Virus record (IMG/VR): IMGVR_UViG_3300032893_003185
Span: 1 to 39,346 of that record
Length of the DNA stretch: 39,346 nt
Strand: one strand, 5' to 3'
From: a virus
The position numbers and the translations under genes were made by a program. The stretch's first letter is position 1. The number at the start of each line of letters is the position of its first letter. The notes below the pieces were generated by a model. The model was not told the origin of the DNA, searched no databases, and worked only from the letters and a program-made list of their open reading frames with translations. This document shows positions 10,583 through 26,327 of this stretch, one piece after another.

Positions 10583-10992
10583 GACGCCTCCGCCCGGCGA
10601 AGGACCGCGAGACGCTGGAAATCGCGCTTAAGCTGTTCGAGCCGGTGGCTGCATTCGGCGATCTGGGCGGACACAAGCCGCATGCTTTCGGCGACGTCTT
10701 GCCGGGAGACGATCTGGTCGATGGCCTGGGAAATCAGCCACCTTTCCTCGTCGTCGCCTTGAGCCAGGCGCAGGCCGACCTGCGCGATTCCATACCGCAC
10801 GGTGGCGCGGTCGCGGTTGATCGGGCGGCCGATCATGCTCGGCCCTGCGTCCGGCCGGACGAGGGTGCAAAGGTACATACCGCGCTGCCGAACCCGGACA
10901 ACCGGGGGAAGCCGGGAGCCCCCTCCAAGCTCGCCGTGGGTAAAGCCACTCAGTGCGCCGGCGACCCGGTACACTTCCCTCAGGTTGATCAT
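10579..10992 (-). CDS. hypothetical early phage protein
   Basis: This 137-residue protein begins MINLREVYRVAGALSGFTHG at 10992, in ATGA overlap with the GcrA-like gene, and ends in a coiled helix (AECSHRLEQLKRDFQRLAV). A middle strand region contains RGMYLCTLVRPDAGPSMIGR. I do not recognise the family. The open frame continues further upstream over the gcrA-like gene, but only as shadow. Confidence 0.65.
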   Translation of the reverse strand: MINLREVYRVAGALSGFTHGELGGGSRLPPVVRVRQRGMYLCTLVRPDAGPSMIGRPINRDRATVRYGIAQVGLRLAQGDDEERWLISQAIDQIVSRQDVAESMRLVSAQIAECSHRLEQLKRDFQRLAVLRRAEAS

Positions 10993-11495
10993 GACGCCAT
11001 CGCCCTTTGCACGGCCTTGGCGTTGCGGCGGTCCCAATCGGCCGCGGACATGCCCGCTCCGCCGATGGCCGTGTGCTGGGCGCAATAGGGGCCGTCTCCG
11101 TCGCGGGATTCGGCGCAGAACAGCTGGTCCGCGCCGGTCGCCAGACCCACCGGCCAGCGGCAATGGCGGCCCTGCAGCTGCACCAGGCGCAGGGGCTCGG
11201 GCGAGGACCACACGACGCCGGGGGGCTCGATCGGGGGCGCGGGCGGCTGCTCCGACAAAGCCCGCTCGCGGGCGACCTTCGTCTTGACGATGGCCGCGCC
11301 GATCAGCCCCGACGCGCGCTTGGCGGGCGCTGGCGCGGCGTGCCGCCCCGACTTGGAGAGCCCGAGGCGATGCACCTTGGAGATCACCGCGTTCCTGGTG
11401 GTCCCCGGCAGTCGCTTGGCGATCTGGCTCGCGGACAGCCCCTCGACCTGCCACCAGGTCGCCAGCTGCTTTTCGTTCTGCTCGGTCCAGATCAC
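10989..11495 (-). CDS. gcrA: phage-encoded GcrA cell-cycle regulator homologue
   Basis: This 168-residue protein has both conserved ends of GcrA. The DNA-binding domain is near residues 2-46 (MIWTEQNEKQLATWW, GLSASQIAKRL, TRNAVISKVHRLGLS). The C-terminal sigma70-interacting segment has CRWPVG at 112-117, FC at 126-127 and PYCAQH at 136-141. Host GcrA binds sigma70-RNA polymerase and activates promoters carrying CcrM-methylated GANTC sites. A phage copy could redirect cell-cycle transcription or read methylation on phage DNA. The C-terminal 25 residues differ from the host type. It is coupled on both sides by ATGA overlaps. Confidence 0.9.
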   Translation of the reverse strand: MIWTEQNEKQLATWWQVEGLSASQIAKRLPGTTRNAVISKVHRLGLSKSGRHAAPAPAKRASGLIGAAIVKTKVARERALSEQPPAPPIEPPGVVWSSPEPLRLVQLQGRHCRWPVGLATGADQLFCAESRDGDGPYCAQHTAIGGAGMSAADWDRRNAKAVQRAMAS

Positions 11496-12785: not shown

Positions 12786-13748
12786 TCACGCGGCCTGGCG
12801 GGACTGCTGGGTCCACGCCTGCTTGAGGTGATCCAGCACGCGGTCCTCGCCCTGGCTGGAGGCCAGGAAGGTGGCCATCTCCATGACCTGGGTCAGGTTG
12901 CGCAGGTGGCCCGGCTGGGCGGCGACGGCCGCCAGGAACTCCAGCTCGCGCGGGTGCTTCACGCCCCAGGCCGCGCACAGGACGGCCACATCGTTGGCCG
13001 TGGGCTTGCCGTAGACGTGGGGCATGGACACGCGGCTGAACAGCTGGGCGAACTCGGCCTTGCGCGCGCCGCCCTGCAGGCGGGTGAGCACCGTGGCGTT
13101 GCCCCCGAACACGATGCCCGCGCCGATCTCGTCGTGGATGGCGCGCAGCACTTCCAGCGAGACGTCGGTCAGATGCTGGGCTTCATCGACGATCAGAAGG
13201 GCGTCGGAGCCCGCCAGGCGGTCGCACAGGATGCTCATCAGGTTCTGGGTGTTGGACCCGGGCTGGTGCGCCCCCAGGGGCTTGAGCAGCTTGTTCAGCA
13301 TCGCGCCGGGCGCCCGCGTGGCGGGGTTCATGGCGCCCAGGTGCACGTTGGGGTGCGTGGCCTGGTACTGCAGGAACGAGGCGGTCTTGCTGATGCCCGG
13401 CGGCCCGCAGACCACCGCGATCTTGCCGCGCTGGGCCCAGGAGCACTGGGCCATGATCTTCCTGGACGTCTCGGTCGGATGGAAATGCGGGATGTCCGGC
13501 GCGTCGATCTCAAGCCGGGTGCGCTCGTCGTGCGAGCGGAAGAACCGCGCGACCTTCCACGCCACCTTGCGGTTGTCGCCGGCGTAGCGGCCCGGTCCCC
13601 ACTGAGACAGGGTGCTGCTGGCGATGTCGGTGGCGATCCCCAGCTGGCCCCAGCTGTATCCGTTGGCGTCCCGGAAGGCCATCAGCCGGACGCGCAGGTC
13701 TTCGACCTCCGCATCGCTGAAATCTTCCTGTCCTCTATCGACGTTCAT
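12786..13748 (-). CDS. B: Mu B-like AAA+ ATPase, target DNA activator
   Basis: This is a 320-residue AAA+ ATPase. The N-terminal helix-turn-helix region (near 10-60, YSWGQLGIATDIASSTLSQW) and the Walker A motif GPPGISKT (115-122), Walker B LLIVDEAQHL (185-194) and a sensor-like FGGNATVLTRL are all present. Mu B forms filaments on target DNA, activates the A transposase and gives target immunity. It is slightly longer than Mu B (312 residues). A 76-base gap with two hairpins separates it from A, a possible control point between the two. Confidence 0.92.
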   Translation of the reverse strand: MNVDRGQEDFSDAEVEDLRVRLMAFRDANGYSWGQLGIATDIASSTLSQWGPGRYAGDNRKVAWKVARFFRSHDERTRLEIDAPDIPHFHPTETSRKIMAQCSWAQRGKIAVVCGPPGISKTASFLQYQATHPNVHLGAMNPATRAPGAMLNKLLKPLGAHQPGSNTQNLMSILCDRLAGSDALLIVDEAQHLTDVSLEVLRAIHDEIGAGIVFGGNATVLTRLQGGARKAEFAQLFSRVSMPHVYGKPTANDVAVLCAAWGVKHPRELEFLAAVAAQPGHLRNLTQVMEMATFLASSQGEDRVLDHLKQAWTQQSRQAA

Positions 13749-13824: not shown

Positions 13825-15789
13825 TCATGGTCGGGTGCGCAGGCGATCGATGCCGGCGCTGAACATGTCGATCACCGAGGCGGGGTCGCGCGTCGGCGCG
13901 GGCGACGCCGCCGCAGCGGCCTGAACAACCACTCCTCGACCGCGCACCGCGCGCACCACCGCCGGCGGTTCGGGCTGGTCGTCCTCGATCGTGCTGGGCA
14001 GGAAGGCCGCCAGCTTGTCGGCGTCCATGATGCGGGCGATCTCCTCGGCCCGACGGGTCGAGCGGCGCAGTTCGCTTTCCTGTTTCGCCCGCCGCTTGGC
14101 GGCCTCCGCGTCCAAGAATGCGGGCTGCTCGAGCAGCGGGGCCGTGCCGATGAACTCGCCGTCGACGCTGTAGACGTGGACCGGCAACAGCAGGTCGTCG
14201 GGGTCGAACCGCACGATGGCGCGGCGGCCGGCGATCGCGTGAAGTTCGGGCGTGAAATAGGTGTTGCCGTAGAGGCGGACCGCGCCCGAGCGCCGATCGA
14301 CCGAGGTCAGCTCGCCCGCCAGCAGCGCCAGGCGCATCTGCGCCTCGGTGGCCATGCCGATCGGTGCGGTGCGGCGGGACTCCTCGTAGACCTGGTCGAA
14401 GCTGCGGCCGTTGGCGGTCTCTGTGCGCCGGCCGAGGCGCGCGTTGTGGGCCTGGATGCCCAAGGCCACCACCGTCTTGAAATCGGCCAGGGCGACGGCC
14501 TTGGCGCCGTAGTTTTCAGGCTTGGCGTCGGGCTTGTTGCCGGTGTAGGCGCCGTCGCAGGCCGGGTGTTTGCCCACCGCCTCTTCCAGGTCGCGGAACG
14601 AGCGCTCGATCGGCTTGGATTGGCCGCGGTACGGGGTGGCCCAGTGGATCTTGACGCCCAGCTGGGTCAGCAGGCCGGTGGGCTCTTCGGGCAGAGGCTT
14701 GAACCGGAAGCGGTTGGACACACCGCCGGTGATCCACTTGGAGGCGAAGGCCCGGCCGTTGTCCATCAGGCAGCCCTTGGGGATGCCGTGGGTGCGGATC
14801 AGGTCGCCGAAGGCCAGTCGGGTGAGCACCGCCGACTCGCTCTCGCCGATGCGCCAGGCGAGAATTTTCCGCGAATAGACGTCCTGGATCATGACCATCA
14901 TCGGACGGGCGATGCGGCTCTCTGGACCCGGCCATTTGACGAACACGTCCCAGCGGTGGCCGTCGATGTTGACCAGCTCCAGGGCGTGGAGCGCCGCGAC
15001 GCTGCGCTGCTGGGGCGGGATCACCTGGCGCAGGGCCTCCTGGCCGTTGCGGCGCATGATCACCACGCGCGGGTCGATCTCGCGCTCCAGGCGGCGCTGG
15101 AAGGTCTTGACGTGGGGCAGCTCGCCCCAGCCCTGCTCCTTGGCGGCCTGTTGGGCGCGGGCGTAGGACCCCGCCCAGGTCGGCTTGGACGGGCGCAGAT
15201 AGTCGGCGACGAAATAATCCCAGGCCTTGGGATGGATCGCGGCCTCGGCGCCGCCGCCCTGGCGGCGCGGCGCCAGGTGGGCCAGCCGATCGTGGACCGA
15301 TACGCCGGCCACCAGGCCGATCCAGTTCCATAGGGTGGCGTTCGAGACGCCTTGGGCGGCGGCGGCGGCCGAGATGGCGGCCGTGCGGGTCTGGCCCTGG
15401 CGCTCGAGCGCCTCGACGGCGTCCACCGCGCGCTGGCGGCGACGGGCCTCGGCCTTGGTTTTCTCGGTCTGCTGCTCGTACCAGGACCACAGCTGCCCTG
15501 CGGTGACCGGCTCGCCCCGGTCAGGCTCGTTGTCGGGGGTGAGCAGGCCGCGCCGGGCCAGTTCGGTGGCCGCGCGGGGCGGCAGGAGCGCGATGTTGTA
15601 CTCGAATCCGCCGCCGCGTCCGGCCCGGGCCCGGGCGAGCGGCGCGCCGCCGGCGTCGGTGCGGAAGGCCCAGCGATTGTCGCTGGCCAGTTCGTTGATC
15701 TTCCGCTTGGTCTGCGGAAGCCCCGGCAGGGCCAGCTCGGCCAGTTCGGCCGCTGTGAACCACGTCTTGTCGCCCCCCCCAGGACCCAT
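13825..15789 (-). CDS. A: Mu A-like DDE transposase
   Basis: This is a 654-residue transposase that joins phage ends to target DNA for integration and replication. The N-terminus (TWFTAAELAELALPGLPQTK) is the Mu-type DNA-binding domain. The catalytic core has D276 (NIDGHRWDVFV), D343 (CLMDNGRAFAS) and E395 (SKPIERSFRDLEE). The D-to-D spacing of 67 equals that of Mu A, D269 to D336. The C-terminal region after about 520 includes a beta-barrel (VDRRSGAVRLYGNTYFTPEL) and a basic tail that would bind B. The start shares a base with the upstream stop (TGATG). Confidence 0.95.
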   Translation of the reverse strand: MGPGGGDKTWFTAAELAELALPGLPQTKRKINELASDNRWAFRTDAGGAPLARARAGRGGGFEYNIALLPPRAATELARRGLLTPDNEPDRGEPVTAGQLWSWYEQQTEKTKAEARRRQRAVDAVEALERQGQTRTAAISAAAAAQGVSNATLWNWIGLVAGVSVHDRLAHLAPRRQGGGAEAAIHPKAWDYFVADYLRPSKPTWAGSYARAQQAAKEQGWGELPHVKTFQRRLEREIDPRVVIMRRNGQEALRQVIPPQQRSVAALHALELVNIDGHRWDVFVKWPGPESRIARPMMVMIQDVYSRKILAWRIGESESAVLTRLAFGDLIRTHGIPKGCLMDNGRAFASKWITGGVSNRFRFKPLPEEPTGLLTQLGVKIHWATPYRGQSKPIERSFRDLEEAVGKHPACDGAYTGNKPDAKPENYGAKAVALADFKTVVALGIQAHNARLGRRTETANGRSFDQVYEESRRTAPIGMATEAQMRLALLAGELTSVDRRSGAVRLYGNTYFTPELHAIAGRRAIVRFDPDDLLLPVHVYSVDGEFIGTAPLLEQPAFLDAEAAKRRAKQESELRRSTRRAEEIARIMDADKLAAFLPSTIEDDQPEPPAVVRAVRGRGVVVQAAAAASPAPTRDPASVIDMFSAGIDRLRTRP

Positions 15790-16476: not shown

Positions 16477-16684
16477 GCGACTGCCTCGCGCGTTCGGCCG
16501 CGAGCCGGGCCTTGCGGTCGGTCCAGGTTTCGAACAGGTGCTCGTCCCAGTTGTTGGGGACGCTGCGGCCGGGCTCGATCTCGTAGGCGTGGACGGACTG
16601 CCCCTTGGGCGGCTCCTTGCGCGGCGTGCCCCGGGCCGTCAGGCCGGCGGCCAGATAGGCTTTGCGCTTGCCGCCGGGCATCAT
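16469..16684 (-). CDS. hypothetical small basic early protein
   Basis: This 71-residue protein (MMPGGKRKAYLAAGLTARGT, PNNWDEHLFETWTDRKARLA) starts at 16684 in ATGA overlap with the ParB-like gene. A second ATG three bases on could serve equally well. It is basic with an acidic-aromatic middle. No family is recognised. Confidence 0.6.
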   Translation of the reverse strand: MMPGGKRKAYLAAGLTARGTPRKEPPKGQSVHAYEIEPGRSVPNNWDEHLFETWTDRKARLAAERARQSHG

Positions 16685-17889
16685 TCGGCGTCCCCCCGCC
16701 TGGAGGGCGACGGCCGGCCGTCCCGGCCTAGCGCTTTGGCGGTCCGATCAACCGTTCCGTGATCGCCGCCATGCGTCGAAGTCTTCGGCTTTCCCGTGTG
16801 TCCGGCGCGCTTTGCGCCGCCTTTCGCAACGCCGCGTCGGCGAGCGTCAGGGCGAGGAAATACGTCGATCGCGGCTGGTTCGCCGGCGGCGTCCTGGTCC
16901 ACAGATGGGTCAGCAGGTAGGCGCTGTATCCCATCCAATTCGGCGATTTGCGAGCCATCGGCACTCTCCTGGGCCAAGGGGGCCAGAATAGCCCGCAAGT
17001 CGGCCGGTAGGCGCGGGTCGCGAACAACGACGTCGGCCAACACGGCGCGAACGGAGCGGACCGAGAGCCGGCTCCATAGCGCCGCGAACTGGGATTGAAG
17101 CTTGTCTTGTCCCTGCAGCGGCAGTGGTCTCTGGCGGATGATGTCGAGGGCGGCCGAGACGGTCTTCGCGCCGGCGACCAGGTGCTCGACGACGGCCCTT
17201 TGATCGGCTTCCGAGAGCAGCGCGAGGGCGCGCAGCTGGCCCGCATTGGAGGCCACCGGCAGGCCGCGTAGCCGGGCGGCCAGGTCGGGGCGCAGGCCCC
17301 GGTGCAGGGCCAGGTCGCGACGAATGGTGCGGGCGTTCAGCCCCAACTTGTCGCCGACCTGCTCAGACCAGCCGTATGCAACGGACATCGTGTCCGTTGC
17401 ATCCTGGGCATCGGCGGCGAGGGCCTTTGACCAGCGGGTTTCCGCCGATACCGCGCGACCGTCCTTCTGGGGATCGACACCGGCGCGGACCTTATGGATC
17501 GTCACCAACTCGGCGACGAACGCGGCGCGGTCGATCGGGTCGAGCCCCTTGCGCCACAGGTTTTCGGAGATCTCGGCCGCGCGCCGGGCCAGCGCGTCGG
17601 CGTCCACCAGGACGACCTTGAGCGCAAGGCCGGCCGTCAGGGCGCCATGATGCCGGTGGCCGCCTGTGACGAGACGGAAGCCCGCCTGCCCCGGCAGGCG
17701 GCAGACCTTGCACGGGTCCTGCTGGCCTTCGGCCGCCATGATCTTGCCCAGGGCCTCGCCCCAGGCCGAATCGATCGGCCGCAAACGGTCCACCACCTGG
17801 ATCTCGCGCGGGTCGATTTCGAACACCTGATCGACCGGAACGAGAGCCGAAGAGGCCTCTTTGACGCGCAGGGTTGTGGCGGGGGCCAT
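16681..17889 (-). CDS. ParB/Spo0J-like protein in the early train
   Basis: This 402-residue protein has the ParB N-terminal fold: VDRLRPIDSAWGEALGKIMA, the box VTGGHRHHGALTAG near 75-88 (in place of the usual GERRxRA), and ENLWRKGLDPIDRAAF near 109-124. A helix-turn-helix follows (SEQVGDKLGLNARTIRRDLA near 174-193). Host ParB is a CTP-dependent clamp for chromosome partition; phage relatives often act as regulators or nuclease-like proteins. The last 95 residues are Gly/Arg/Pro-rich, and a second gene seems to be nested in this stretch. It lies two bases after the Ner-like gene. Confidence 0.82.
   Translation of the reverse strand: MAPATTLRVKEASSALVPVDQVFEIDPREIQVVDRLRPIDSAWGEALGKIMAAEGQQDPCKVCRLPGQAGFRLVTGGHRHHGALTAGLALKVVLVDADALARRAAEISENLWRKGLDPIDRAAFVAELVTIHKVRAGVDPQKDGRAVSAETRWSKALAADAQDATDTMSVAYGWSEQVGDKLGLNARTIRRDLALHRGLRPDLAARLRGLPVASNAGQLRALALLSEADQRAVVEHLVAGAKTVSAALDIIRQRPLPLQGQDKLQSQFAALWSRLSVRSVRAVLADVVVRDPRLPADLRAILAPLAQESADGSQIAELDGIQRLPADPSVDQDAAGEPAAIDVFPRPDARRRGVAKGGAKRAGHTGKPKTSTHGGDHGTVDRTAKALGRDGRPSPSRRGDAE
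16728..16958 (-). CDS. candidate gene nested in another frame of the ParB-like tail
   Basis: A 76-residue frame starts at ATG 16958 with AGGAGAG about six bases before it. It reads MARKSPNWMGYSAYLLTHLW, then STYFLALTLADAALRKAA and RRLRRMAAITERLIGPPKR, which looks like a folded amphipathic protein. By my count about three quarters of its codons end in G or C, against about 60 percent for the ParB frame over the same bases. Either two proteins are made from this stretch or the ParB tail is a poorly constrained extension. Confidence 0.45.
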   Translation of the reverse strand: MARKSPNWMGYSAYLLTHLWTRTPPANQPRSTYFLALTLADAALRKAAQSAPDTRESRRLRRMAAITERLIGPPKR

Positions 17890-17891
17890 GT

Positions 17892-18149
17892 CTAGGCCGC
17901 CCCGCCATTTAGACGGTGCGTGTCCCGGTTTCGGGACGTATTATCCGCCTTGGTTCCCTTGAAACGCCCGGGAAAGAGACGGTCGATGGGTTTTCCGACA
18001 TATGCGGCGATGGCCTCGGCGGTCCGTCGCGAAGGCTTGCCGCGCAGGACGTCGCGAACCGAGTCGAGCGGAAGATTCTCGGCGCGCTCGAACGCGCGAG
18101 CCGAGCCATACCCCTTCCTCAGCTGCGCCTTGATATCTTCGGGGTGCAT
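17892..18149 (-). CDS. Ner-like DNA-binding regulator
   Basis: This 85-residue protein fits the Ner/Nlp helix-turn-helix type: MHPEDIKAQLRKGYGSARAF, then SVRDVLRGKPSRRTAEAIAA and the family-typical GKPIDRLFPGRF. In Mu, Ner is the first early gene and turns down both early and repressor promoters. It stands divergent from the repressor gene with only 18 bases between start codons, as expected for a Mu-type switch. The last 16 residues after the domain are extra and overlap a palindrome. Confidence 0.82.
   Translation of the reverse strand: MHPEDIKAQLRKGYGSARAFERAENLPLDSVRDVLRGKPSRRTAEAIAAYVGKPIDRLFPGRFKGTKADNTSRNRDTHRLNGGAA
17922..17937. promoter_or_regulatory. operator-like palindrome GTCCCG-N4-CGGGAC
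   Basis: GTCCCG (17922-17927), spacer GTTT, CGGGAC (17932-17937) lie in the end of the ner-like gene, 33 to 48 bases before the ParB-like start. Its core TCCC-N6-GGGA has the same letters and spacing as the palindrome at 18183-18202. A binding site for the repressor or the Ner-like protein is likely. Confidence 0.45.
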
Positions 18150-18167
18150 TCGAAATCGACTCTCTGA

Positions 18168-18884
18168 ATGAGGGCGCCAAGAAAATCCCAGTCACGGGAT
18201 TTAGAGCCCGAAAACTCGAATGGTCAAGTCGAACCTTCGGGGCGGCGGGCGCTGCTGCCCGAATTTCAGGAGCGCCTGAGGCAGGCGTTGGATGGAAAGG
18301 TCGCGGCGCATGTCGCCAAGGGGGCCGGCCTTCCGCCCCAAACACTCGATGGCTATCTGAAAGGGTCTTTCCCCAGCGCCGATCGTGCGTTCGCCCTGGC
18401 CGACTCGCTCGGCGTGGATCCGCGATGGCTCGTTCTTGGCGTGGGCGAGCCGCACCGCAGCTTCTCCGACAATTCGGATGACGACTGGCTTGTGCTCCCG
18501 CACTTCGATGTCAGGGACTTCGGCGAGCACGGAAAGCCCGAGCCGAAGGAGCATGTGCGCCTTCGTCGGGACTGGCTTCAGGGGATTCGAGCCAGCACCG
18601 GCCTATGGCTGGCCGACATGCCCAGCGACGCCATGCCAGAGATCGCGCGCGAGGGGCAGACGATCGTGTGTCAGGACCCGACGTCGCCGCTGGTCGACGG
18701 GCGGGTCTACATCTTCATGCTCGACGGGCGACTGGTGGTCCGCAAGCTTCAGTTTCGACCGGACGGCATCGCACTAAGGACCAACGATCCGTCCACGCCG
18801 ATGATCACCTTGACGGGCGACCACGCTAATACGTTAATACCGGTCGCCCGCGTCCTTGGAACGATCAACCTCAGCCCGGTGTGA
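18168..18884 (+). CDS. LexA-fold (S24-type) phage repressor lacking catalytic residues
   Basis: This 238-residue protein has a helix-turn-helix near 30-90 (VAAHVAKGAGLPPQTLDGYL, SADRAFALADSLGVDPRWLV) and an S24/LexA-like C-terminal domain. It is divergent from ner and is the lysogeny repressor of the Mu-like phage. In the active-site region the usual G-D-S-M reads SDAM (153-156), putting Ala155 where the Ser nucleophile belongs, and V-K-R-L reads VRKL (191-194), putting Arg192 in place of the Lys. Self-cleavage is therefore unlikely. No other in-frame start codon exists before the HTH region; the ribosome-binding site is weak. Confidence 0.87.
   Translation: MRAPRKSQSRDLEPENSNGQVEPSGRRALLPEFQERLRQALDGKVAAHVAKGAGLPPQTLDGYLKGSFPSADRAFALADSLGVDPRWLVLGVGEPHRSFSDNSDDDWLVLPHFDVRDFGEHGKPEPKEHVRLRRDWLQGIRASTGLWLADMPSDAMPEIAREGQTIVCQDPTSPLVDGRVYIFMLDGRLVVRKLQFRPDGIALRTNDPSTPMITLTGDHANTLIPVARVLGTINLSPV
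18183..18202. promoter_or_regulatory. operator-like palindrome AAATCCC-N6-GGGATTT
   Basis: AAATCCC (18183-18189), AGTCAC, GGGATTT (18196-18202) form a perfect dyad 34 to 53 bases before the ner-like start, where the early promoter should be. It also lies inside codons 6-12 of the repressor as annotated. A GANTC site (GACTC, 18158-18162) sits in the gap between the divergent start codons. Confidence 0.55.
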
Positions 18885-18890
18885 ACAGAG

Positions 18891-19496
18891 ATGACCGCCA
18901 AGGCCCCGCCCGCACTCAGCGCGCGAAATAAAACCCTGCTCGGGACGGCGGTCATCATTGGCATTTCGATACCCGTGGCCGGCCGAATGTTCACCGACTG
19001 GCTCTTTTCTCCCCCTGCCCCAGTATCCGCGCCCGCGCCGGTCAAGCCTGTTGGTCCCCCAACGCTGAGCAGCCTGAGCCCCGACATCAAGTCGGTCACC
19101 GTCGATGGGGACTTCCTATTCATCGACGCCGAGATCAGCGCGGCCTCGAACGATGGCTATGTCGAGCGCATGGCTGACGTGGTCGAACCCGTCGCCAAGG
19201 CGTTCAAGAGCGGCGTTGCGGATAACGTGGCCGGGGTGAAATCCGTGGCGATCACCTTCGACACGCCCGTTGTCGATCGCCTTGGCAACAAGAGCGATGG
19301 CCAGCTCGTGACGATGGGGTTCAGCGCCTCCGACCTGAAGGCGGCGCACTATGAGAACCTCGGTCCCTACAGCATCATGGCGCTGACCAACCACGTCCAG
19401 TTCGCCGACCAGGACGCCGTCGATGGCGTCGCCGCCTGGTGCGTCAAGAACGCTCCGGTGGGCGCCTCCTTCTGCAAGGCTATGCTAGCCCAATAG
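18891..19496 (+). CDS. membrane-anchored protein co-transcribed with the repressor
   Basis: This 201-residue protein has one membrane helix (KTLLGTAVIIGISIPVAGRM near 14-33), a Pro-rich linker (PPAPVSAPAPVKPVGPP) and a globular outer domain (SVTVDGDFLFIDAEISAASN, DNVAGVKSVAITFDTPVVDR) with two late Cys (C184, C194) that could bond. It starts six bases after the repressor stop, so it is made in the lysogen. This suggests lysogenic conversion or exclusion of other phages. No family is recognised. Its stop touches the phage-end repeats. Confidence 0.65.
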   Translation: MTAKAPPALSARNKTLLGTAVIIGISIPVAGRMFTDWLFSPPAPVSAPAPVKPVGPPTLSSLSPDIKSVTVDGDFLFIDAEISAASNDGYVERMADVVEPVAKAFKSGVADNVAGVKSVAITFDTPVVDRLGNKSDGQLVTMGFSASDLKAAHYENLGPYSIMALTNHVQFADQDAVDGVAAWCVKNAPVGASFCKAMLAQ

Positions 19497-19617
19497 GGTC
19501 CCAGTTCGGACGCGCCGCCTGACCGCGTGGCGCCGCCGCGCGCGTTGCTTTTCCCTTATTCCCCTTGGGATTGAGAAACTGGGCCCCGATTCCGCGAACT
19601 GGGACCCCTCAGGTCCC
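19496..19617. repeat. cluster of GGGACC-type inverted repeats at the phage end
   Basis: A 13-base perfect inverted repeat, GGGTCCCAGTTCG (19496-19508) and CGAACTGGGACCC (19595-19607), is followed by GGACCC/GGTCCC arms around CCTCA (19601-19617). Near copies AACTGGGCCCC (19578-19588) and GCGCCCAGTT lie close by. The shared core TCCC/GGGA recalls the operator palindromes near ner. Confidence 0.55.
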
Positions 19618-19757: not shown

Positions 19758-19777
19758 GACTCTAACCGGTCCTGTCC
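19758..19777 (-). repeat. putative transposase-binding site, inner copy (L3-like)
   Basis: On the minus strand this reads GGACAGGACCGGTTAGAGTC, matching the outer copy at 17 of 20 positions. It contains a GANTC site (GAGTC/GACTC). Confidence 0.5.
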
Positions 19778-19800
19778 GAACCACTGTCTAAACGGACCGG

Positions 19801-19820
19801 GACTCTAGACAGCGAAACGC
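19801..19820 (-). repeat. putative transposase-binding site, middle degenerate copy (L2-like)
   Basis: On the minus strand this reads GCGTTTCGCTGTCTAGAGTC. Only the end TAGAGTC and a few other bases agree with the other copies. It contains a GANTC site. It also lies in a 7-base inverted repeat CTGTCTA/TAGACAG (19784-19812). Confidence 0.35.
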
Positions 19821-19870
19821 ATTTTCGATTTCGCCGAATTTTTCTGGAGCCCTTGCCCGGTAAGGGTTTC

Positions 19871-19906
19871 GTCCCGCCCCATCCCGTCCAGTCCCGCCTT
19901 ATCCCG
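19871..19906. repeat. four RTCCCG units at exact 10-base spacing
   Basis: GTCCCG (19871), ATCCCG (19881), GTCCCG (19891) and ATCCCG (19901) follow one another at exactly one helical turn. They lie between the outer and middle transposase-site candidates. The unit shares TCCC with the operator palindromes, so a repressor or transposase accessory binding array on one DNA face is suggested. Confidence 0.5.
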
Positions 19907-19926
19907 GACTCTAATCACTCCTGTCC
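19907..19926 (-). repeat. putative transposase-binding site, outermost copy (L1-like)
   Basis: On the minus strand this reads GGACAGGAGTGATTAGAGTC, starting 8 bases inside the proposed phage end. It agrees with the inner copy at 17 of 20 positions and contains a GANTC site. Confidence 0.5.
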
Positions 19927-19933
19927 CCTAACA

Positions 19934-20141
19934 TCGACGATCATATTAGCGCTGGGATTTCTATCAGCAGTATACTCTATCAAGTTAATCAATATATCAT
20001 GGACTACACGTCCAATTCGAATTCTAAATTCGGCACATCTTCATCAGAACAATGCTCTTTCAAAATTGGAGCAAGGTCCATCAGCTGATTTGCACTACGA
20101 TAAAACGCATCCAGCATTAACAATGCGAATTGGTCATTCAT
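19934..20141 (-). pseudogene. low-GC gene remnant cut by the Mu-like phage end
   Basis: An ATG at 20141, with GAGG seven bases before it, opens a 45-codon frame (MNDQFALLMLDAFYRSANQL, MDLAPILKEHCSDEDVPNLE) that stops at 20004. In the next frame an equally convincing stretch follows (VVHDILINLIEYTADRNPSA, NMIVD) and then runs into the phage end near 19933. A single -1 shift joins them into one 70-residue protein. AT-rich codons differ from everything else in the window. It is probably a host gene broken by phage insertion and one frameshift; two overlapping small genes are the alternative. No family is recognised. Confidence 0.45.
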
Positions 20142-20146
20142 CGTTT

Positions 20147-20284
20147 CTACCTCGTAGAGAGCCCTAATCTCTCTTTACAATCATTAAGGCGCCTATGAAA
20201 GTCATTGAAATTGTTTCCGACGCCAGGTGGGCGATCCAATATCCTCCAGCACTCCTCGATGCATTGGTCGACGGGGAAGCGTCG
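20147..20284 (-). pseudogene. 3' fragment of a low-GC gene at the second prophage boundary
   Basis: A frame without a credible start codon runs from the stop at 20285-20287 to TAG at 20147. It encodes RRFPVDQCIEECWRILDRPP and GVGNNFNDFHRRLNDCKERL, GLSTR, which reads like true protein. Its end overlaps the ribosome-binding site of the next remnant with a five-base gap, an operon-like arrangement. The 5' end is replaced by the terminator of the second prophage, so the prophage junction is probably near 20285-20300. Confidence 0.45.
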
Positions 20285-20301
20285 TCACGCAGGGTTGGGT
20301 G

Positions 20302-20328
20302 AAAAAGCAGCCGCCCTCTCCCGGCGGC
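20302..20328 (-). terminator. Rho-independent terminator of the second prophage late operon
   Basis: On the minus strand a GCCGCC/GGCGGC stem (20328-20323 with 20315-20310) around GGGAGAG is followed by TGCTTTTT. It lies just after the Rz1-like stop codon and closes the late operon. Confidence 0.8.
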
Positions 20329-20333
20329 CCCGC

Positions 20334-20684
20334 CTAAAACCTCAGCCATCCCCACAACCCGGCCGGCCTTGCGGCCCCCGCCTTCGCCCGCTCGGCCTCG
20401 CAGCGCGTCTCGATGTCGAGCACATCGCCCAGGCGCCCGTTGGCCTGGTCCAGGCGCGCGGTCTGGCCGTCCAGGGCGATCCACAGCGCGCCCGCCGTGG
20501 CGTCAGCCGCCGGCAGCGGGGTCGGCGGCACCGGCGTCCGATAGGCCTGCGGGATCAGGGCCGAGCAGTTGAACGCAGGCGGGGTCGCCTCGATACGCGC
20601 CATAGAGGCACAGCCCACGACGGCCGGCGCTGTTGAGGCCAGGATCAAGGCCCTGGCCAGAGCCGGGTGCGGTTTGGATCGCAT
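20334..20684 (-). CDS. Rz1-like outer-membrane spanin lipoprotein
   Basis: This 116-residue lipoprotein has the signal MRSKPHPALARALILASTAP and lipobox VVGC with C25. A Pro-rich stretch (YRTPVPPTPLPAADATAG) and a helix (LDGQTARLDQANGRLGDVLD) follow. It starts inside the Rz-like gene in another frame and runs past its end, the classic overlapping Rz/Rz1 layout. An AGGAG lies about eight bases before the ATG. It would pair with the Rz-like protein to fuse the membranes at lysis. Confidence 0.83.
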   Translation of the reverse strand: MRSKPHPALARALILASTAPAVVGCASMARIEATPPAFNCSALIPQAYRTPVPPTPLPAADATAGALWIALDGQTARLDQANGRLGDVLDIETRCEAERAKAGAARPAGLWGWLRF

Positions 20685-20940
20685 GGTCGTTCTCCTCGTG
20701 CCGGGCCTCGCCGGCCGCATCGCGGGCCGCGCCGGCGGCGATCACGGTTCCGGCGGCTTGACTGGCCTTGGCGTCGGCGTTCGCCATCGCCGCCGCGCCC
20801 TTGGCCGCCTCCAGTTCGGCCTGCAGCCTGGCCGCGTGACCGGCTTCCGCGCGCCATAGCCACAGCGCCAAGGCCAGCAGCGACGTGAGCAAAGCCATCG
20901 CCGCCGCCCGCCAATGAGTCAGGATCAGCGCCCAGGTCAT
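20503..20940 (-). CDS. Rz-like inner-membrane spanin
   Basis: This 145-residue protein has one N-terminal membrane helix (AAMALLTSLLALALWLWRAE) and an Ala/Glu-rich coiled coil (AARLQAELEAAKGAAAMANA), as in i-spanins. Its last third is Gly/Ala/Pro-rich because the bases also encode the Rz1-like protein. ATG at 20940 overlaps the endolysin stop (ATGA). Order is holin, endolysin, Rz, Rz1. Confidence 0.8.
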   Translation of the reverse strand: MTWALILTHWRAAAMALLTSLLALALWLWRAEAGHAARLQAELEAAKGAAAMANADAKASQAAGTVIAAGAARDAAGEARHEENDHAIQTAPGSGQGLDPGLNSAGRRGLCLYGAYRGDPACVQLLGPDPAGLSDAGAADPAAGG

Positions 20941-21431
20941 GCGGTCGCCTCCTGCGCGCGCGCCGCCGCCAGCGCCTCGGCCGTCACCGTGTCCACCCGC
21001 TTCAGCCAACCCGCGCCGAACGCGGGAAAGCCGGCCAGGGTGCGATAGCGGGCCGCCCGCGCCGCGCTCATCCGCCCGATACGCTCGCTCGCGCTTCCCG
21101 CCCCCGCGGTGGCCAACAGGCGCCGGGCCTCGCCCACGCCCATGTTGACCGCCGCATCGAACGCCATCAGGTCCAGCCCGGCCGCCAGTGCCTCGCACCC
21201 CGCCGGCCGCCAGTAGAAGGCGCGATAAAGGCTCGCCGCCTCGCCCAGGGTCATATCGCGCAGCGAGTCGGGGGTCGCCGGGCGCCCCAGCGCACGCGAA
21301 TAGGCCGCCAGGGTCACGCCCATATTGGTCGGGCCGCCCCGGTCGCGCGGATCGTCGACATAGCCGCCCTCCAGGGCCAGCACCGTCTGCAGGCACGCCT
21401 CGAACCGGCCCTCGGCCGGCGCGGCGCTCAT
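20937..21431 (-). CDS. GH108 endolysin of the second prophage
   Basis: This 164-residue muramidase has the GH108 motif LEGGYVDDPRDRGGPTNMGV near 20-39 with the catalytic Glu21, then YRAFYWRPAGCEALAAGLDL and FDAAVNMGVGEARRLL. It cleaves peptidoglycan at lysis. There is no signal peptide. It is shorter than the endolysin of the Mu-like phage and lacks its calcium-like loop; the two are clearly different genes. ATG at 21431 overlaps the holin-like stop (ATGA). Confidence 0.92.
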   Translation of the reverse strand: MSAAPAEGRFEACLQTVLALEGGYVDDPRDRGGPTNMGVTLAAYSRALGRPATPDSLRDMTLGEAASLYRAFYWRPAGCEALAAGLDLMAFDAAVNMGVGEARRLLATAGAGSASERIGRMSAARAARYRTLAGFPAFGAGWLKRVDTVTAEALAAARAQEATA

Positions 21432-21742
21432 GCGCCGGGCTCGGTGGGATTGGTCCAGCGGATCAGCCCGGCGATGGCCGCGATCATCGCCGGCGCATAG
21501 GCCGTCAGCGCGGCCAGCAAGCCCGCCCAGGTGGCCCAGGCCGCCTTCTGCAGCACCAGCGCCCCCACAATCACGGCGGGCAGGATCACCAGCAGGTGCA
21601 CGCACACCAGCGCGCCCAGCACGCGCCCGATCGCGGGGGTTGCGTTGTCGGCGCCGGACAGCAGCAGCACGCACCAGCCGCTCCAGGTCGCGGGCGCGCG
21701 CGCCGGCGCGCGTGAAGGCGCCGCCGCGGATGCGTCGGTCAT
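21428..21742 (-). CDS. membrane protein, probable holin
   Basis: This 104-residue protein has two or three membrane helices (LGALVCVHLLVILPAVIVGA, LVLQKAAWATWAGLLAALTA, YAPAMIAAIAGLI) after a Pro/Ala-rich start. It directly precedes the endolysin. ATG at 21742 with GGAG six bases before it is preferred over a TTG four codons upstream. Its first 20 residues are low complexity. Holin function is inferred from topology and neighbours. Confidence 0.72.
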   Translation of the reverse strand: MTDASAAAPSRAPARAPATWSGWCVLLLSGADNATPAIGRVLGALVCVHLLVILPAVIVGALVLQKAAWATWAGLLAALTAYAPAMIAAIAGLIRWTNPTEPGA

Positions 21743-21779
21743 GGCAGTCTCCAAGATTGAGGGAAGGCGCCGGCGGGGC

Positions 21780-22715
21780 CTAGGCCGCCGCGTCCTCGTT
21801 GCGCTCGCGGAAATAGTCGCGCGCCTGGTCGATCAGCCGGCGCTTGTCGGTGGCCCATTGCAGCAGGCCATGCCGGTCATAGGCCACGTCCCGCGCGGGA
21901 TCGTAGGCGTTGCCGGTCAAGATCTCCCACCGTTCCACATAGCGCCGGTCCGCCTTGTGACCGTGAAAGCGGTGGTGGATCGCGCCGGGCAGATAACCGA
22001 TGTTGCGCTTGACCGCCGCCTCGGCCCGCGCCTGCCACGCGAGCACCATCTCCTTGTAGTTGCGGTGAATTCCGCCAGGATAGGACTGCTCGCCCTGCCC
22101 GATCAGGGCGCACGCCATATGGTGGTCGCCCGCCCCCATCACCGCCCGGTCGATCATGCCGCCCACCGCGTTCCACGCCTCCATGCGCCAGAACCAGGCA
22201 TAGCCGGGATGCCAATAGGGCCCGCCATAGCGATGCCCGCCCAGCCGGTTGTTCGGCCCCAGCCGCGCGCCCTGACGCCAACAATAGGCGAAGCCCTTGT
22301 GCGTCTGCATCGGCTCGCCCTGCGGCCCATAGTCGATCGCATGGCTGAACGGCTGCACCACGTCATAGTGCTGCAGATATTCCACCGTCTCGCTCGCCCA
22401 GTCGTCGCGCTCGAACGCCACATCGCCGTCGACCCAGCCCAGATAGCGCGCCTCGGGCGGCAGGTGACGCGCGCCCACATTGATCAGGTTCTCCTTCAGC
22501 CACAGCTCGCTGTCGCAGCGCACGCGAATGTGGCGCGGATTTTCCGGGTCCAGCACCGCCGGCTCGCGCTCGCCGAACGTCGCCTCCACCACCCACACCG
22601 TCGCGCCCGAGGCCTCCATCCGGGGCAGGAACTCCCGAAACAGCCGCACCCGCGAGCGATAGCGCACGGGGTTGGACATGACCGCAATGACATGCAGGTC
22701 CGACGCGGAAAGCAT
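21780..22715 (-). CDS. glycosyltransferase-like protein (GT-A type)
   Basis: This 311-residue protein begins with a Rossmann-like strand (LHVIAVMSNPVRYRSRVRLF) and has a metal-binding DxD motif, GWVDGDVAFERDDW (D96, D98). Further on, GGPYWHPGYAWFWRMEAWNA and GAGDHHMACALIG resemble the acceptor side of family-2-like enzymes. It would transfer a sugar to a surface polysaccharide, a protein or DNA; the acceptor cannot be told. It faces away from an acyltransferase gene, so surface conversion of the lysogen is plausible. ATG at 22715 has AGG six bases before it. Confidence 0.75.
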   Translation of the reverse strand: MLSASDLHVIAVMSNPVRYRSRVRLFREFLPRMEASGATVWVVEATFGEREPAVLDPENPRHIRVRCDSELWLKENLINVGARHLPPEARYLGWVDGDVAFERDDWASETVEYLQHYDVVQPFSHAIDYGPQGEPMQTHKGFAYCWRQGARLGPNNRLGGHRYGGPYWHPGYAWFWRMEAWNAVGGMIDRAVMGAGDHHMACALIGQGEQSYPGGIHRNYKEMVLAWQARAEAAVKRNIGYLPGAIHHRFHGHKADRRYVERWEILTGNAYDPARDVAYDRHGLLQWATDKRRLIDQARDYFRERNEDAAA

Positions 22716-22788
22716 GAAGGCCTCGCTTGATGCAAAAATAAGGAAACGGGATGTGACGGCGGCCTTGAGCGCTGGCTCCGGCGCCCAC

Positions 22789-22829
22789 CGCCTGGTCAGG
22801 CGCCGGCGGCTCTGACCGAAAGCCGCCGG
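22789..22829. other. hairpin pair between divergent cargo genes
   Basis: A small dyad (GCCTG-GT-CAGGC, 22789-22800) is followed by a strong one (CCGGCGGCT 22803-22811, AGCCGCCGG 22821-22829). They lie in the 205-base gap between the divergent glycosyltransferase and acyltransferase genes, away from any stop codon, so termination is an odd explanation. Protein binding or a module scar is possible. The rest of the gap holds nothing I can name. Confidence 0.4.
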
Positions 22830-22920
22830 ACCGGCCGCCGAAGCGCCGACGGGCCGCCGCGCAATTGATCGGGGTCGGGCGCCGGGCTAGAAAAGAAGCG
22901 CCCAGTCCGGGCGGTCAGCG

Positions 22921-24039
22921 TTGGGCGTCATCGATGGACGAAATTCAATCGCCGCCCCCGCGAGACCGCATGTGTGGGTCGACGCCCTGCGCGGCCTGGC
23001 GGCGTGCCTGGTCGTCGTGTCCCACTATCTGTGGACTCCTTTGGCCGCCTACGAAGGCGTGTGGCACTACATCATCAGCCCGGGCGAGGCCGGCGTGGCC
23101 GCGTTCTTCTGCATCAGCGGCCTGGTCATTCCCTTCTCGGTCCGCAAGGACAGCGGGCCCAAGGGCGCCGCCGGCTTCCTGATCAACCGCGCCTTCCGCC
23201 TCTACCCGGCCTATTGGATCGCGGTCCTAGTCGCCGTGCTGGCCAGCCACCCGCCGCTGCGCAACGTGCTGATCAATCTGACCATGGCGCACCGCTTCGT
23301 CGGCGTGCCCGACGTCATCGCCGTGTTCTGGACCCTGCAGGTCGAGATCGTGTTCTACGCGATCATCACCGCGTTCCTGGTCCTGGGCGTCAACAACCGG
23401 TCCAAGGCCTATTGGGTGTCGTGGATCGTGGCCCTGTCGCTGGCCCTGGCGTGCGGCCTGACGCGGTATGTCCTCCACATCAAGGCGCCGGTGGCCCTGT
23501 TCGCCGGCCTGACCGTGATGTTCGGGGTCGCGACCTATTTCGAGAACGGCCTTCGCCGGGCGCTGGGTCCCCGCCTGCTGCACGCCGTTCTGGCCGCCTC
23601 GGTGCTCATCCTCCCGGCCACCTGGATCATGTCCTACATGCAGAACTGGGGCTACGGAGAGGTCAAATACCTGTCGGGCATAACCTCCATCGTCAACTAC
23701 AGCGTCGCCACCCTGACCTTCGTCCTGTTTTCCCGGATCAAGAAGGTCTGGGGCGTCTTCGTCTTCCTGGGCGACATCAGCTACCCGCTCTATCTGTTCC
23801 ACGCGCCGATCCACGACCTCATCGTGGCCAAGCTGTCGTCCCACCTCGGTTTCTGGGGCGCCACCGGCCTCAGCGTGGTCGCCGCCCTGATCCTGGCCAC
23901 CCTGGTGCACCGGATCATCGAGCGCCCGATGATCGCGCTCGGCCGACGCCTCGCCAAACCTCTGCGCATGGCGTCCAGCCAGCCCCCGCCGCCCCTCGGC
24001 CAGCCCCTCCCCGACACGCCTGCGACGGCGGACGCGTAA
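22921..24039 (+). CDS. acyltransferase family 3 membrane protein (OafA-type)
   Basis: This 372-residue protein has about ten membrane helices and the family start VWVDALRGLAACLVVVSHYL with D21, R24 and the essential-type His35. NRAFRLYPAYWIAVLVAVLA and FWTLQVEIVFYAIITAFLVL are also typical, as is LGDISYPLYLFHAPIHDLIV. Such enzymes acetylate O-antigen or other glycans across the inner membrane. Phage versions change the host serotype and block superinfection. The start is TTG at 22921; GTG at 22972 would also keep the whole domain. It is read against the late genes, as cargo. Confidence 0.88.
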   Translation: MGVIDGRNSIAAPARPHVWVDALRGLAACLVVVSHYLWTPLAAYEGVWHYIISPGEAGVAAFFCISGLVIPFSVRKDSGPKGAAGFLINRAFRLYPAYWIAVLVAVLASHPPLRNVLINLTMAHRFVGVPDVIAVFWTLQVEIVFYAIITAFLVLGVNNRSKAYWVSWIVALSLALACGLTRYVLHIKAPVALFAGLTVMFGVATYFENGLRRALGPRLLHAVLAASVLILPATWIMSYMQNWGYGEVKYLSGITSIVNYSVATLTFVLFSRIKKVWGVFVFLGDISYPLYLFHAPIHDLIVAKLSSHLGFWGATGLSVVAALILATLVHRIIERPMIALGRRLAKPLRMASSQPPPPLGQPLPDTPATADA

Positions 24040-24073
24040 GGGGTTGGGGGCGGCCAGACAGGGGGCTTTTTGA

Positions 24074-24271
24074 ATGACGTCTAGCGGCGCGATCATTTTG
24101 ACACTGGTGCTAGCGGCCATGGCGGGTGCAGTTCTGGGAGCAAAAGTCCGTTGTGACGACCCGCGGCGACGAATGATCAATGCCGCCAAATGGAGCGGTC
24201 TATTCGCGGTGGGCGCAGCTGCCGGTTGGATTTTGCTCAAGCTCATTTCAACGGTTGCCGGGGGCGGATGA
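24074..24271 (+). CDS. small two-span membrane protein
   Basis: This 65-residue protein has two membrane helices (AIILTLVLAAMAGAVLGAKV and WSGLFAVGAAAGWILLKLIS) around a basic loop (RCDDPRRRMINAAK). It follows the acyltransferase by 34 bases on the same strand and may be co-transcribed. No family is recognised. It could assist the acyltransferase or act in exclusion. Confidence 0.55.
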   Translation: MTSSGAIILTLVLAAMAGAVLGAKVRCDDPRRRMINAAKWSGLFAVGAAAGWILLKLISTVAGGG

Positions 24272-24318
24272 GCCGCAGCTCAGTATCGCTGAGAGCGCCT
24301 CGCCTATTGCGCTCGCCG

Positions 24319-25539
24319 CTAGAACGCTCCCACCAAGGCCCGCGTTACGCCGGCGGCGATGTCCTCGTAGCCTGCAATGGACGGGTGATATTGGGCCGCC
24401 GATCCTGCCCAGCCCTGGCTTTGCGCCTGCGCCATGCCGCCGACCCGGCCGTTCCAATCGATCATTGGCACGTTAAGCGCTCCGGCCACGCTCCGCACCG
24501 ACGAAACGTATGGAGCCTGGACCGCTGCAGTAACGACGCTGGTCAGGGTTGGAAACGGCGTCATGATGATAACGTCAGACTTACCCAGCGTCGTCACAGC
24601 ACCGGCGATCGCCGTCAGATTGGCGGCGGTATTGGCCGCGCCGACGCCGTAAATCCAATCGTTGATTCCCAGGCTGATGATGTTGAGCGATGCCTGATAG
24701 GCGGTCGACTTGAGCACGAGGCCAGGATTCCAAGCCGAAGCAGTCGCCGCCCATTGCGTAGTCGTTGATCCACCCGCGCCCATGTTGCGGATGCGCACTC
24801 GGTGAATAGTCGAGTTGTAGAAATCGACACCGGCGATGTAGAGCGTGCCAGAGCCTGTCCGCTGGAGGCAAAGCGAATGCGTCGCTGACGCGCCGAGGCT
24901 GATTGTCAGGGTGTTGATGCCGCTACCGGTCGTGGAATTGGCTCCGCTGACCGACCCGCTGTCCACTTGGTAGGTGAAAGACGCCGAGCTTCCGGTGCTG
25001 ATGTAGAAGATCGTGGCGTGATCTTCGGCGAGGGCTGTAGTGGTCGTCAGACAGTTGGTGGTCGTGCTGTTCTGATCAGGTTGACCGCCAGGTATATTGG
25101 AACCCAAAGCGCTCGGAGCCCACCCGGAGCCGTCGCTGACGTTCGGATAATAGCCTGCCAATGTCGAGCCGTGCGCCCCGGCAGAGCCGTCCCCGAACCA
25201 GTTATCGGCCGAGGCTGGAATGCCGCTGGCGGTGAGTTGCGCGGCCAAGTCGGTAGGAAACGAAGTGACCCGCGCATTGGCATAGACTGCATCGGCCGCC
25301 CCCGTGGAGTTGACGCCCGCTGACGTGCTGTCGCCGATGATATTGACAACTGTGTCGGAGACGCCCGCGCGAGTATTGGCAAGCGCCAGCCGAAAGTTCG
25401 CTAGGTTGGCATACGAGAGGTTATAAGCCCCGGGGATCGCGTCAGTGTTGCTGAACATGGGCCCCATACCCACCGGCACCGCCCACGCCGGCTTGGCGAC
25501 GGCGAGGAGCGCCGCGAGGGCGCAGAGAAGACGCTTCAT
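24319..25539 (-). CDS. secreted SGNH/GDSL-type esterase
   Basis: This 406-residue protein has a signal peptide (MKRLLCALAALLAVAKPAWA) and SGNH blocks: NIIGDSTSAG with Ser71, SLGINDW with N293, and AAQYHPSIAGY with His385. A beta-rich insertion near 180-260 looks like a carbohydrate-binding jelly roll. Such phage enzymes remove acetyl groups from surface glycans. Its GC content is visibly lower than that of its neighbours, a sign of later arrival. It stands downstream of tail and fibre genes, so it may be part of the particle, although a signal peptide would be unusual for that. Confidence 0.82.
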   Translation of the reverse strand: MKRLLCALAALLAVAKPAWAVPVGMGPMFSNTDAIPGAYNLSYANLANFRLALANTRAGVSDTVVNIIGDSTSAGVNSTGAADAVYANARVTSFPTDLAAQLTASGIPASADNWFGDGSAGAHGSTLAGYYPNVSDGSGWAPSALGSNIPGGQPDQNSTTTNCLTTTTALAEDHATIFYISTGSSASFTYQVDSGSVSGANSTTGSGINTLTISLGASATHSLCLQRTGSGTLYIAGVDFYNSTIHRVRIRNMGAGGSTTTQWAATASAWNPGLVLKSTAYQASLNIISLGINDWIYGVGAANTAANLTAIAGAVTTLGKSDVIIMTPFPTLTSVVTAAVQAPYVSSVRSVAGALNVPMIDWNGRVGGMAQAQSQGWAGSAAQYHPSIAGYEDIAAGVTRALVGAF

Positions 25540-25550
25540 GACGGCGGCCC

Positions 25551-25964: not shown

Positions 25965-26015
25965 GATGTCCTCGTGGGTGGGGCCGCCGGGAGGGCGGCG
26001 GGGAATTGAGCCGGG

Positions 26016-26327
26016 TCAGTCGCCCGCGGCGCCGCGCCGGGGACGCGCGCGCAGCATCAAGTGGGTCACGCTGTCCTCCACCTGCTCGAAGCGGCGAGCG
26101 AAGGTAGTCTTGATCTCGTCGACGCTGGCCTTGAGCGCCTGCAGCGTGGCGGTGATCGCCGCCAGGGCCGCGCCGCTGTCCTCGCCCTGCCGGGCGCGCG
26201 CCTCCAGGCCCTCGACCCGCGCCGACAGCTTGCCGAGGTGAAAAGCGAACAGCGCCGCCTGGATCACCAGGCCAAGCGCGGTCAACGCCACGCCGGCCAG
26301 GGCCATCACATCCACGCTCGGCGCCAT
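26016..26327 (-). CDS. membrane-anchored coiled-coil protein
   Basis: This 103-residue protein has one membrane helix (LAGVALTALGLVIQAALFAF) followed by coiled coil (KLSARVEGLEARARQGEDSG, LQALKASVDEIKTTFARRFE) and a basic end. The layout recalls DUF2730-type or spanin-like phage proteins. Its role is unknown. It follows the 321-residue structural gene by three bases. Confidence 0.6.
   Translation of the reverse strand: MAPSVDVMALAGVALTALGLVIQAALFAFHLGKLSARVEGLEARARQGEDSGAALAAITATLQALKASVDEIKTTFARRFEQVEDSVTHLMLRARPRRGAAGD

What the first reader, a model, noticed from the sequence alone, without database searches (positions are those of the whole stretch)
19758..19926. Each putative transposase-binding repeat at the phage end contains a GANTC (CcrM) site
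Three related 20-base repeats (19758-19777, 19801-19820, 19907-19926) all end in GAGTC. The rest of the middle copy has diverged, so GANTC is within the best-kept part. Another GANTC lies at 19588-19592. With a phage GcrA in the same genome, transposition could be timed to hemimethylated DNA behind the fork, as Dam does for IS10. That would tie phage transposition to the cell cycle.
Basis: partly seen in the sequence, partly recalled or inferred. Interest (0 to 1): 0.7.

Follow-up and report, generated by a model that had tools for sequence, protein, structure and literature searches.

The report
Mu-like phage left-end transposase sites
The three repeats are the docking sites for the transposase at the left end of a Mu-type phage; the cell-cycle methylation site inside them comes and goes among related phages, so it is probably a by-product of what the transposase reads, although a separate conserved palindrome overlapping the middle repeat looks functional.

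Summary
On the - strand the three repeats end in GAGTC; they are the L1, L2 and L3 transposase sites of a Mu-like phage whose left end is at 19933, in the layout and register of phage D108. In relatives GANTC is at 12 of 28 L1, 9 of 26 L2, 11 of 18 L3, 15 of 21 R1 and 0 of 21 R2 sites. The base that CcrM ignores is conserved (45 of 49 L1+R1 sites), while the C it needs is the least conserved (28 of 49). Phage G045, with matching duplications and a host that has a CcrM-type RAMA domain, has no GANTC in L1, R1 or R2. Phage-borne GcrA does not track GANTC. GAGTC is best read as the edge of the transposase recognition sequence; methylation is incidental, or modulatory in some phages at most. Unexpected: the middle repeat overlaps a palindrome, TGTCTA-N15-TAGACA, with a second copy at the end of the ner-like gene. 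Both copies occur in 24 of 40 left-end regions; what binds them is unknown.

The parts
19904..19933 (-). Left terminus of the Mu-like phage and transposase site L1 (TGTTAGGGGACAGGAGTGATTAGAGTCCGG read inward); 19934 is the first flanking base
   Evidence: First 12 bases identical to L ends of prophages with matching 5-bp duplications (G001b and G208; G001a and G061); GAGTC at offset 22 as in relatives
19801..19811 (-).
   Evidence: 106 bp from L1; the first two CGAAA elements of the D108 left end are 105 bp apart; pentamer resembles the phage's own L1 in G045 and L145
19758..19777 (-). Transposase site L3 (GGACAGGACCGGTTAGAGTC read inward)
   Evidence: 149 bp from L1; an L3 at 149-150 also in 6 of the 10 other phages of the 13-row clade with a known L end, not in G045, G044, G035, G025
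19785..19811 (-). 27-bp dyad copy 1: TGTCTA-N15-TAGACA
   Evidence: 26 of 40 left-end regions at two mismatches or fewer, 15 exact; 0 at one mismatch or fewer in a pool of 17 downstream loci, 669 kb with both strands summed
17889..17915 (-). 27-bp dyad copy 2 (CGTCTA-N15-TAGACA) at the ner-like stop codon and the start codon of the ParB-like gene
   Evidence: 29 of 40 regions; context
17892..18149 (-). Ner-like regulator
   Evidence: Pfam HTH_35 E 7.7e-10; PHROG 769 transcriptional repressor E 6.2e-12
16681..17889 (-). ParB-like protein
   Evidence: PHROG 3264 ParB-like partition protein E 2e-30; no Pfam match over cut-off
13825..15789 (-). Transposase A (MuA-like)
   Evidence: DDE_2 E 1.1e-49, HTH_Tnp_Mu_2, Mu-transpos_C, HTH_Tnp_Mu_1
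12786..13748 (-). MuB-like target protein
   Evidence: Phage-MuB_C E 6.8e-17
10989..11495 (-). Phage GcrA
   Evidence: PF07750 E 6.4e-29
18168..18884 (+). CI/S24-type repressor
   Evidence: Peptidase_S24 and HTH_3; PHROG 4
19588..19592 (+). Fourth GANTC (GATTC), offset 341 from the end
   Evidence: None of the 14 relatives with an L end placed has a GANTC at that offset

Best explanation
The repeats are the L1, L2 and L3 binding sites of the phage's own transposase, laid out as in Mu: L1 at the terminus, L2 106 bp and L3 149 bp inward. GAGTC is the inner edge of the recognition sequence (GACA, about nine bases, TRGAGT + C or G). It sits in the register of the CGAAA edge of D108 sites. GANTC arises when the last, loosely specified base is C. 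In a CcrM host those adenines should be methylated (inference), but methylation is not what the sites are kept for. A second constraint is visible: L2 overlaps one arm of a conserved 27-bp dyad whose twin lies at the end of the ner-like gene, probably bound by one phage protein (Ner-like, ParB-like or the N-terminal domain of A; inferred).
For: MuA, MuB and Gam domains. Ends with matching 5-bp duplications in 17 related prophages: 9 of 15 tested, 6 of 15 (5 of these 15 were re-tests), G025 and G181b; 3 weaker ones. L1-L3 spacing of 149-150 in the window and 6 kin and R1-R2 spacing of 22 resemble D108's annotated sites at 11-27 and 156-172, and 37188-37204 and 37209-37225. In pooled L1+R1 (n=49) matches to G,A,G,T,C are 45, 48, 45, 44 and 28; 11 of 13 one-off pentamers change base 5, one changes base 2 and one base 3. 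L1 and R1 of the IMG/VR set were found without scoring the pentamer. The two dyads occur together in 24 of 40 regions, neither in 9, one alone in 7.
Against: C is still preferred: of 37 L1+R1 sites with GAGT, 26 continue with C (counted), and R1 has GANTC in 15 of 21, so some selection on C in part of the clade is possible. L3 of L123 is GAATC and R1 of G025 is GACTC, which keep GANTC while changing the third base. No group of hosts without CcrM and with the same motif was available as a control. The window's right end is off the contig, so its own duplication and R sites could not be seen.
Confidence: 0.82

Rival explanations
1. CcrM methylation of GANTC in the sites times transposition to hemimethylated DNA, as Dam does for IS10, in this phage and its nearest relatives only.
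For: GANTC in all three L sites here and in G181a; R1 has it in 15 of 21; all 14 host genomes tested have a RAMA-domain hit, a CcrM proxy; methylation control of IS10 is described in PMC5371812 (passages).
Against: Absent at L1 in 16 of 28 and at R2 in 21 of 21; G251 lacks it at both L1 and R1 although its duplications match; G045 has none in the first 250 bp of its left or 300 bp of its right end; base-3 versus base-5 conservation runs the wrong way; promoter GANTC not conserved.
Confidence: 0.1
2. The GANTC sites are promoter elements for the phage GcrA, unrelated to transposition.
For: A phage GcrA is present.
Against: The sites hold fixed offsets from the phage end and lie in transposase sites; phages with GANTC at L1 often lack GcrA (G001a, G001b, G002, L115, L123), and G035 has GcrA without GANTC at L1 or R1.
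Confidence: 0.03
3. The repeats and their GANTC are chance similarity.
For: The middle copy is weak by itself.
Against: Same layout and spacing in many relatives.
Confidence: 0.01

Closest known systems
Phage Mu / D108 ends with MuA
   Same: MuA and MuB proteins; TG terminus; D108 L1 and L3 annotated 145 bp apart against 149 here, D108 R1 and R2 21 bp apart against 22 in relatives; CGAAA in D108 at offsets 21, 126 and 166, so its GA is at the same two positions as the GA of GAGTC in L1
   Different: Different recognition sequence; an S24/CI-type repressor; a ParB-like gene; a conserved dyad over L2
Roseobacter Mu-like phages vB_ThpS-P1 and vB_PeaS-P1
   Same: Mu-like phages of Alphaproteobacteria with a ParB gene next to transposase A (passages of PMC5488378; A 40-41% identical)
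   Different: Their ends and any dyad were not examined here
IS10/Tn10 Dam-controlled transposition
   Same: A methylation site lies inside a transposase-binding end in this phage
   Different: Not conserved in relatives, and no conserved promoter site
Alphaproteobacterial phages that carry cell-cycle genes
   Same: phiCbK-like phages carry a GcrA homologue (passages of PMC9437464)
   Different: That paper reports no positional asymmetry of predicted GcrA sites in the phage genomes it analysed (same passages); here GcrA sits in a Mu-like phage

Membership tests
Mu-like transposable phage | MuA-type DDE transposase plus MuB | tested here: met
Mu-like transposable phage | Left end with L1, L2, L3 at about Mu spacing and a TG terminus | tested here: met
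Mu-like transposable phage | Five-base target duplication | tested here: inconclusive
   The window's other end is off the contig. Found in 17 related prophages; not found in G035, nor in G597, G420, G566
Mu-like transposable phage | Internal transposition enhancer | tested here: inconclusive
   Dyad copy 2 is a candidate only
Methylation-timed transposon (IS10 type) | Methylation site in the transposase-binding ends, conserved in relatives | tested here: not met
Methylation-timed transposon (IS10 type) | Conserved methylation site at the promoter that drives the transposase operon | tested here: not met
   12 of 29 ner genes have GANTC within 200 bp upstream; 13 sites against 8.7 expected. 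Present in the window at 18158-18162
Methylation-timed transposon (IS10 type) | Binding or activity depends on the methylation state | not testable with these tools
   needs biochemistry

The most novel reading that the evidence does not exclude
The twin 27-bp dyads form a built-in two-point synapsis and regulatory system: one phage protein (ParB-like, Ner-like or the N-terminal domain of A) binds copy 1 inside the left end, over L2, and copy 2 at the ner gene, linking left end and internal enhancer during transpososome assembly or blocking it in lysogens. In phages whose L2 is GAGTC, CcrM methylation next to the dyad arm could further tune this.
Probability: 0.25. Interest if true: 0.6.

Novelty: new member of a known kind. 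Interest (0 to 1): 0.38.

Why it matters
It weighs a cell-cycle-timing idea against some forty related phages and finds it not borne out, and it defines the end sites of a little-studied clade of alphaproteobacterial Mu-like phages. It also exposes a conserved palindrome pair joining the left end to the early operon, a testable lead on how such phages assemble or restrain their transposition complex.

Tried and rejected
A GANTC pair 14 bp apart upstream of A in L003-L006 looked regulatory, but in G001a and G002 its offsets fall inside the ParB-like coding match; rejected as a promoter signal.

GcrA-GANTC linkage was tested and dropped. GcrA lies near A in the window, G218, G035, G181a (weak, below cut-off) and 4 of 20 virus records. 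L1 has GANTC in the window, G218, G181a and L142 but not in G035 or L109; L1 of G001a, G001b, G002, L115 and L123 has GANTC without phage GcrA.

An exact-pattern scan of IMG/VR for the outer repeats found 0. A search for twin dyads with other arms gave nothing convincing in the 12 relatives without a clear pair or with a doubtful one; of 15 rows given only the window and G061 stood out. Bases outside the arms pair only partly, so no longer stem is claimed. A look for a recalled Ner-operator hexamer in D108 found one partial match at 321, inconclusive.

What was dropped or not scanned. One search was given 61 IMG/VR loci: 57 of the 61 (L138, L156, L161 and L164 left out because A lies too near the start or the hit is partial) and 4; most other loci were not scanned for ends. 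18 of the 61 gave an L1 at score 14 or more (best control 13.2); the other 43 did not, whether for lack of the end or a different end. L160 (score 20.6, pentamer TTGCC) was left out as doubtful, so 17 of those 18 rows are in the L1 count; with it L1 would be 12 of 29. Of 20 records, nine without a credible R1 (L109, L123, L131, L142, L149, L107, L121, L128, L155) were left out; L153 (score 12.3) was kept because its duplication matches. Twelve more distant prophages are outside the counts: GANTC at L1 in 0 of 12, at R1 in 2 of 12 (G769a, G769b, near-identical copies), and in the R2 stretch of one (G967). In one search the chosen end pair of G251 and G045, and that of G061, ranked second by raw score and was chosen for its motif. 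Counts are of phages, not of independent events; they are related by descent. L3 counts use rows scoring 5 or more of 6 (18 of 29), four of which may be misplaced; L2 counts use rows with at least 5 of 6 TGTCTA bases (26 of 29). Copy 2 was searched with CGTCTA, so its CTA codon count (26 of 29 against 2.1% of Leu codons in 13 A genes) is partly circular.

Full report
What is in the window. The window is a 39,346-base virus record. From 19933 leftward lies a Mu-like phage: S24/CI-type repressor (18168-18884, +), Ner-like regulator (17892-18149, -), ParB-like protein (16681-17889, -), transposase A (13825-15789, -), MuB (12786-13748), Gam (11904-12530), GcrA (10989-11495), then a lysozyme-type gene (6564-7184), a terminase (1467-3227) and further genes towards the left edge. 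To the right is a different phage region with P22-like coat and portal genes. The right end of the Mu-like phage is not in the record.

The observation. The three repeats and their GANTC are as described. Read inward from the right, the terminus is TGTTAGGGGACAGGAGTGATTAGAGTC, and GAGTC occurs at offsets 22, 128 and 171.

What the repeats are. Relatives of the A protein were taken from 15 of 390 genomes of one family (that of Caulobacter sp. SLTY, G002) at E <= 1e-100, 9 of 385 of the class at E <= 1e-80 and 11 of 398 of the phylum at E <= 1e-60 (the lists overlap), plus IMG/VR loci. Searching prophages for a TG-start left end and a right end with the same flanking five bases gave clear ends in 9 of 15 and 6 of 15 (five re-tests among them; three further ones weaker), in G025 after extending the stretch and in G181b after correcting the register by one base: 17 in all. 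G035, G597, G420 and G566 gave none. The ends of the window's kin share GACA, about nine bases, then a pentamer at offsets 22-26; L3 lies 149-150 bp from L1 in six of them, and R2 lies 22 bp from R1. D108's annotated transposase sites (11-27 and 156-172 on the left; 37188-37204 and 37209-37225 on the right) have the same plan; its CGAAA elements are at offsets 21, 126 and 166, so GA is in the register of GAGTC and an unannotated element stands where L2 is here. In Mu the two ends carry three MuA sites each and an enhancer takes part in assembly (passages of PMC3562280 and PMC3362531). The repeats are therefore L1, L2 and L3.

Is GANTC conserved? In the 13-row clade around the window (support 100/100) plus IMG/VR records, GANTC is at 12 of 28 L1, 15 of 21 R1 and 0 of 21 R2, 9 of 26 L2 and 11 of 18 L3. 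R2 reads GAGCA or TAGCA in all 21. In the IMG/VR set L1 and R1 were located from their first 22 bases only, so the pentamer is not biased by the search; in the genome set similarity of the two ends was part of the search, and L3 was placed using a GACAG half and one T. Twelve more distant prophages have GANTC at L1 in 0 of 12, at R1 in 2 of 12 and in the R2 stretch of one. The best test is the pattern inside the pentamer. CcrM needs G, A, T and C and ignores base 3 (recalled). In 49 L1+R1 sites base 3 is conserved in 45 and base 5 in 28; 11 of 13 one-off sites changed base 5 and one changed base 3. That is what a protein reading TRGAGT predicts, and the reverse of what selection for GANTC predicts. 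Against this: C is the commonest fifth base (26 of 37 GAGT sites), and L3 of L123 (GAATC) and R1 of G025 (GACTC) keep GANTC with a changed base 3.

Direct counter-examples. G045 has matching duplications (AGAGT) and no GANTC in the first 250 bp of its left or 300 bp of its right end. G251, 57% identical in A, has GAGTG at L1 and GGGTC at R1, although its L3 is GAGTC. G035 carries its own GcrA and has none at L1, R1 or R2; no duplication was found for it, so it may be rearranged. The RAMA domain, which I recall as part of CcrM, is found in 14 of 14 host genomes tested and, among 14 controls, only in Caulobacter vibrioides; this is a proxy for CcrM, not proof.

The GcrA and promoter legs. Phage GcrA and GANTC in the sites occur with and without each other. 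GANTC within 200 bp upstream of the ner gene occurs in 12 of 29 phages, the window among them, 13 sites against 8.7 expected. So the IS10 parallel (passages of PMC5371812) lacks conservation at both points.

The middle repeat. L2 here has no GACA half. Its conserved part is TGTCTAGAGT, the left arm of an inverted repeat TGTCTA-N15-TAGACA (19785-19811); in the 15 exact cases, found without fixing the distance, the arms are 21 bp apart start to start. It is present at two mismatches or fewer in 26 of 40 left-end regions (15 exact). A second copy, CGTCTA-N15-TAGACA, lies at the 3' end of the ner-like gene in 29 of 40; both occur in 24, one alone in 7, neither in 9. In most phages its last bases overlap the start codon of the ParB-like gene; in G181a and L123 another frame follows and the ParB-like match starts about 300 bp further on, so the copy stays with ner. 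No match at one mismatch or fewer occurs in 17 downstream loci (669 kb, both strands summed). Both copies share a G-rich centre. The L2 pentamer resembles the phage's own L1 in G045 (AAGTG/AAGTC) and L145 (GAGTA/GAGTA) and is not GAGT in G061 and G181b, whose L1 is not GAGT; in other phages the two differ in the last base or more. So the middle repeat appears to serve two readers. Which protein binds the dyad is not shown. The two literature searches closest to it listed 7 and 2 papers, none of whose listings describes such a dyad; a search for the arm letters found 529 papers, of which 8 listings were seen. These do not establish that it is unpublished. A search for Mu-like, GANTC and transposase returned one paper, on Paracoccus phages, whose GANTC passage concerns phage methyltransferases.

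Mechanism and certainty. Shown: site layout, lack of GANTC conservation, dyad pair. Inferred: A binds these sites; methylation occurs in the host; methylation has no required role; one factor binds both dyads. I put 0.82 on the incidental reading and 0.1 on a methylation role restricted to part of the clade.

Noticed in passing
window 19785-19811 and 17889-17915: Twin 27-bp dyads, TGTCTA-N15-TAGACA and CGTCTA-N15-TAGACA, at the left end and at the ner-like stop, conserved across much of the clade.
   Followed up: partly
L051 near 13891; L054 (reverse strand) near 11703: Two related phages (G044, G025) sit 286 and 292 bp upstream of the start codon of a GcrA gene, right end facing it, with different duplications (GCCGG, ATCTT) and a tRNA-Gly(CCC) beyond the left end in both.
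   Followed up: partly
window 19934-39346: The Mu-like phage abuts an AT-rich stretch (39% GC in the 200 bp outside its end), then P22-like coat, portal and terminase genes; it may have inserted in or beside another prophage.
   Followed up: no
window 19496-19508 and 19595-19607: A perfect 13-bp inverted repeat, GGGTCCCAGTTCG, with 86 bp between the arms, between the 18891-19496 gene and L3.
   Followed up: no
window 1-39346: GANTC is about four-fold rarer than dinucleotide shuffles predict (38 against 145).
   Followed up: no
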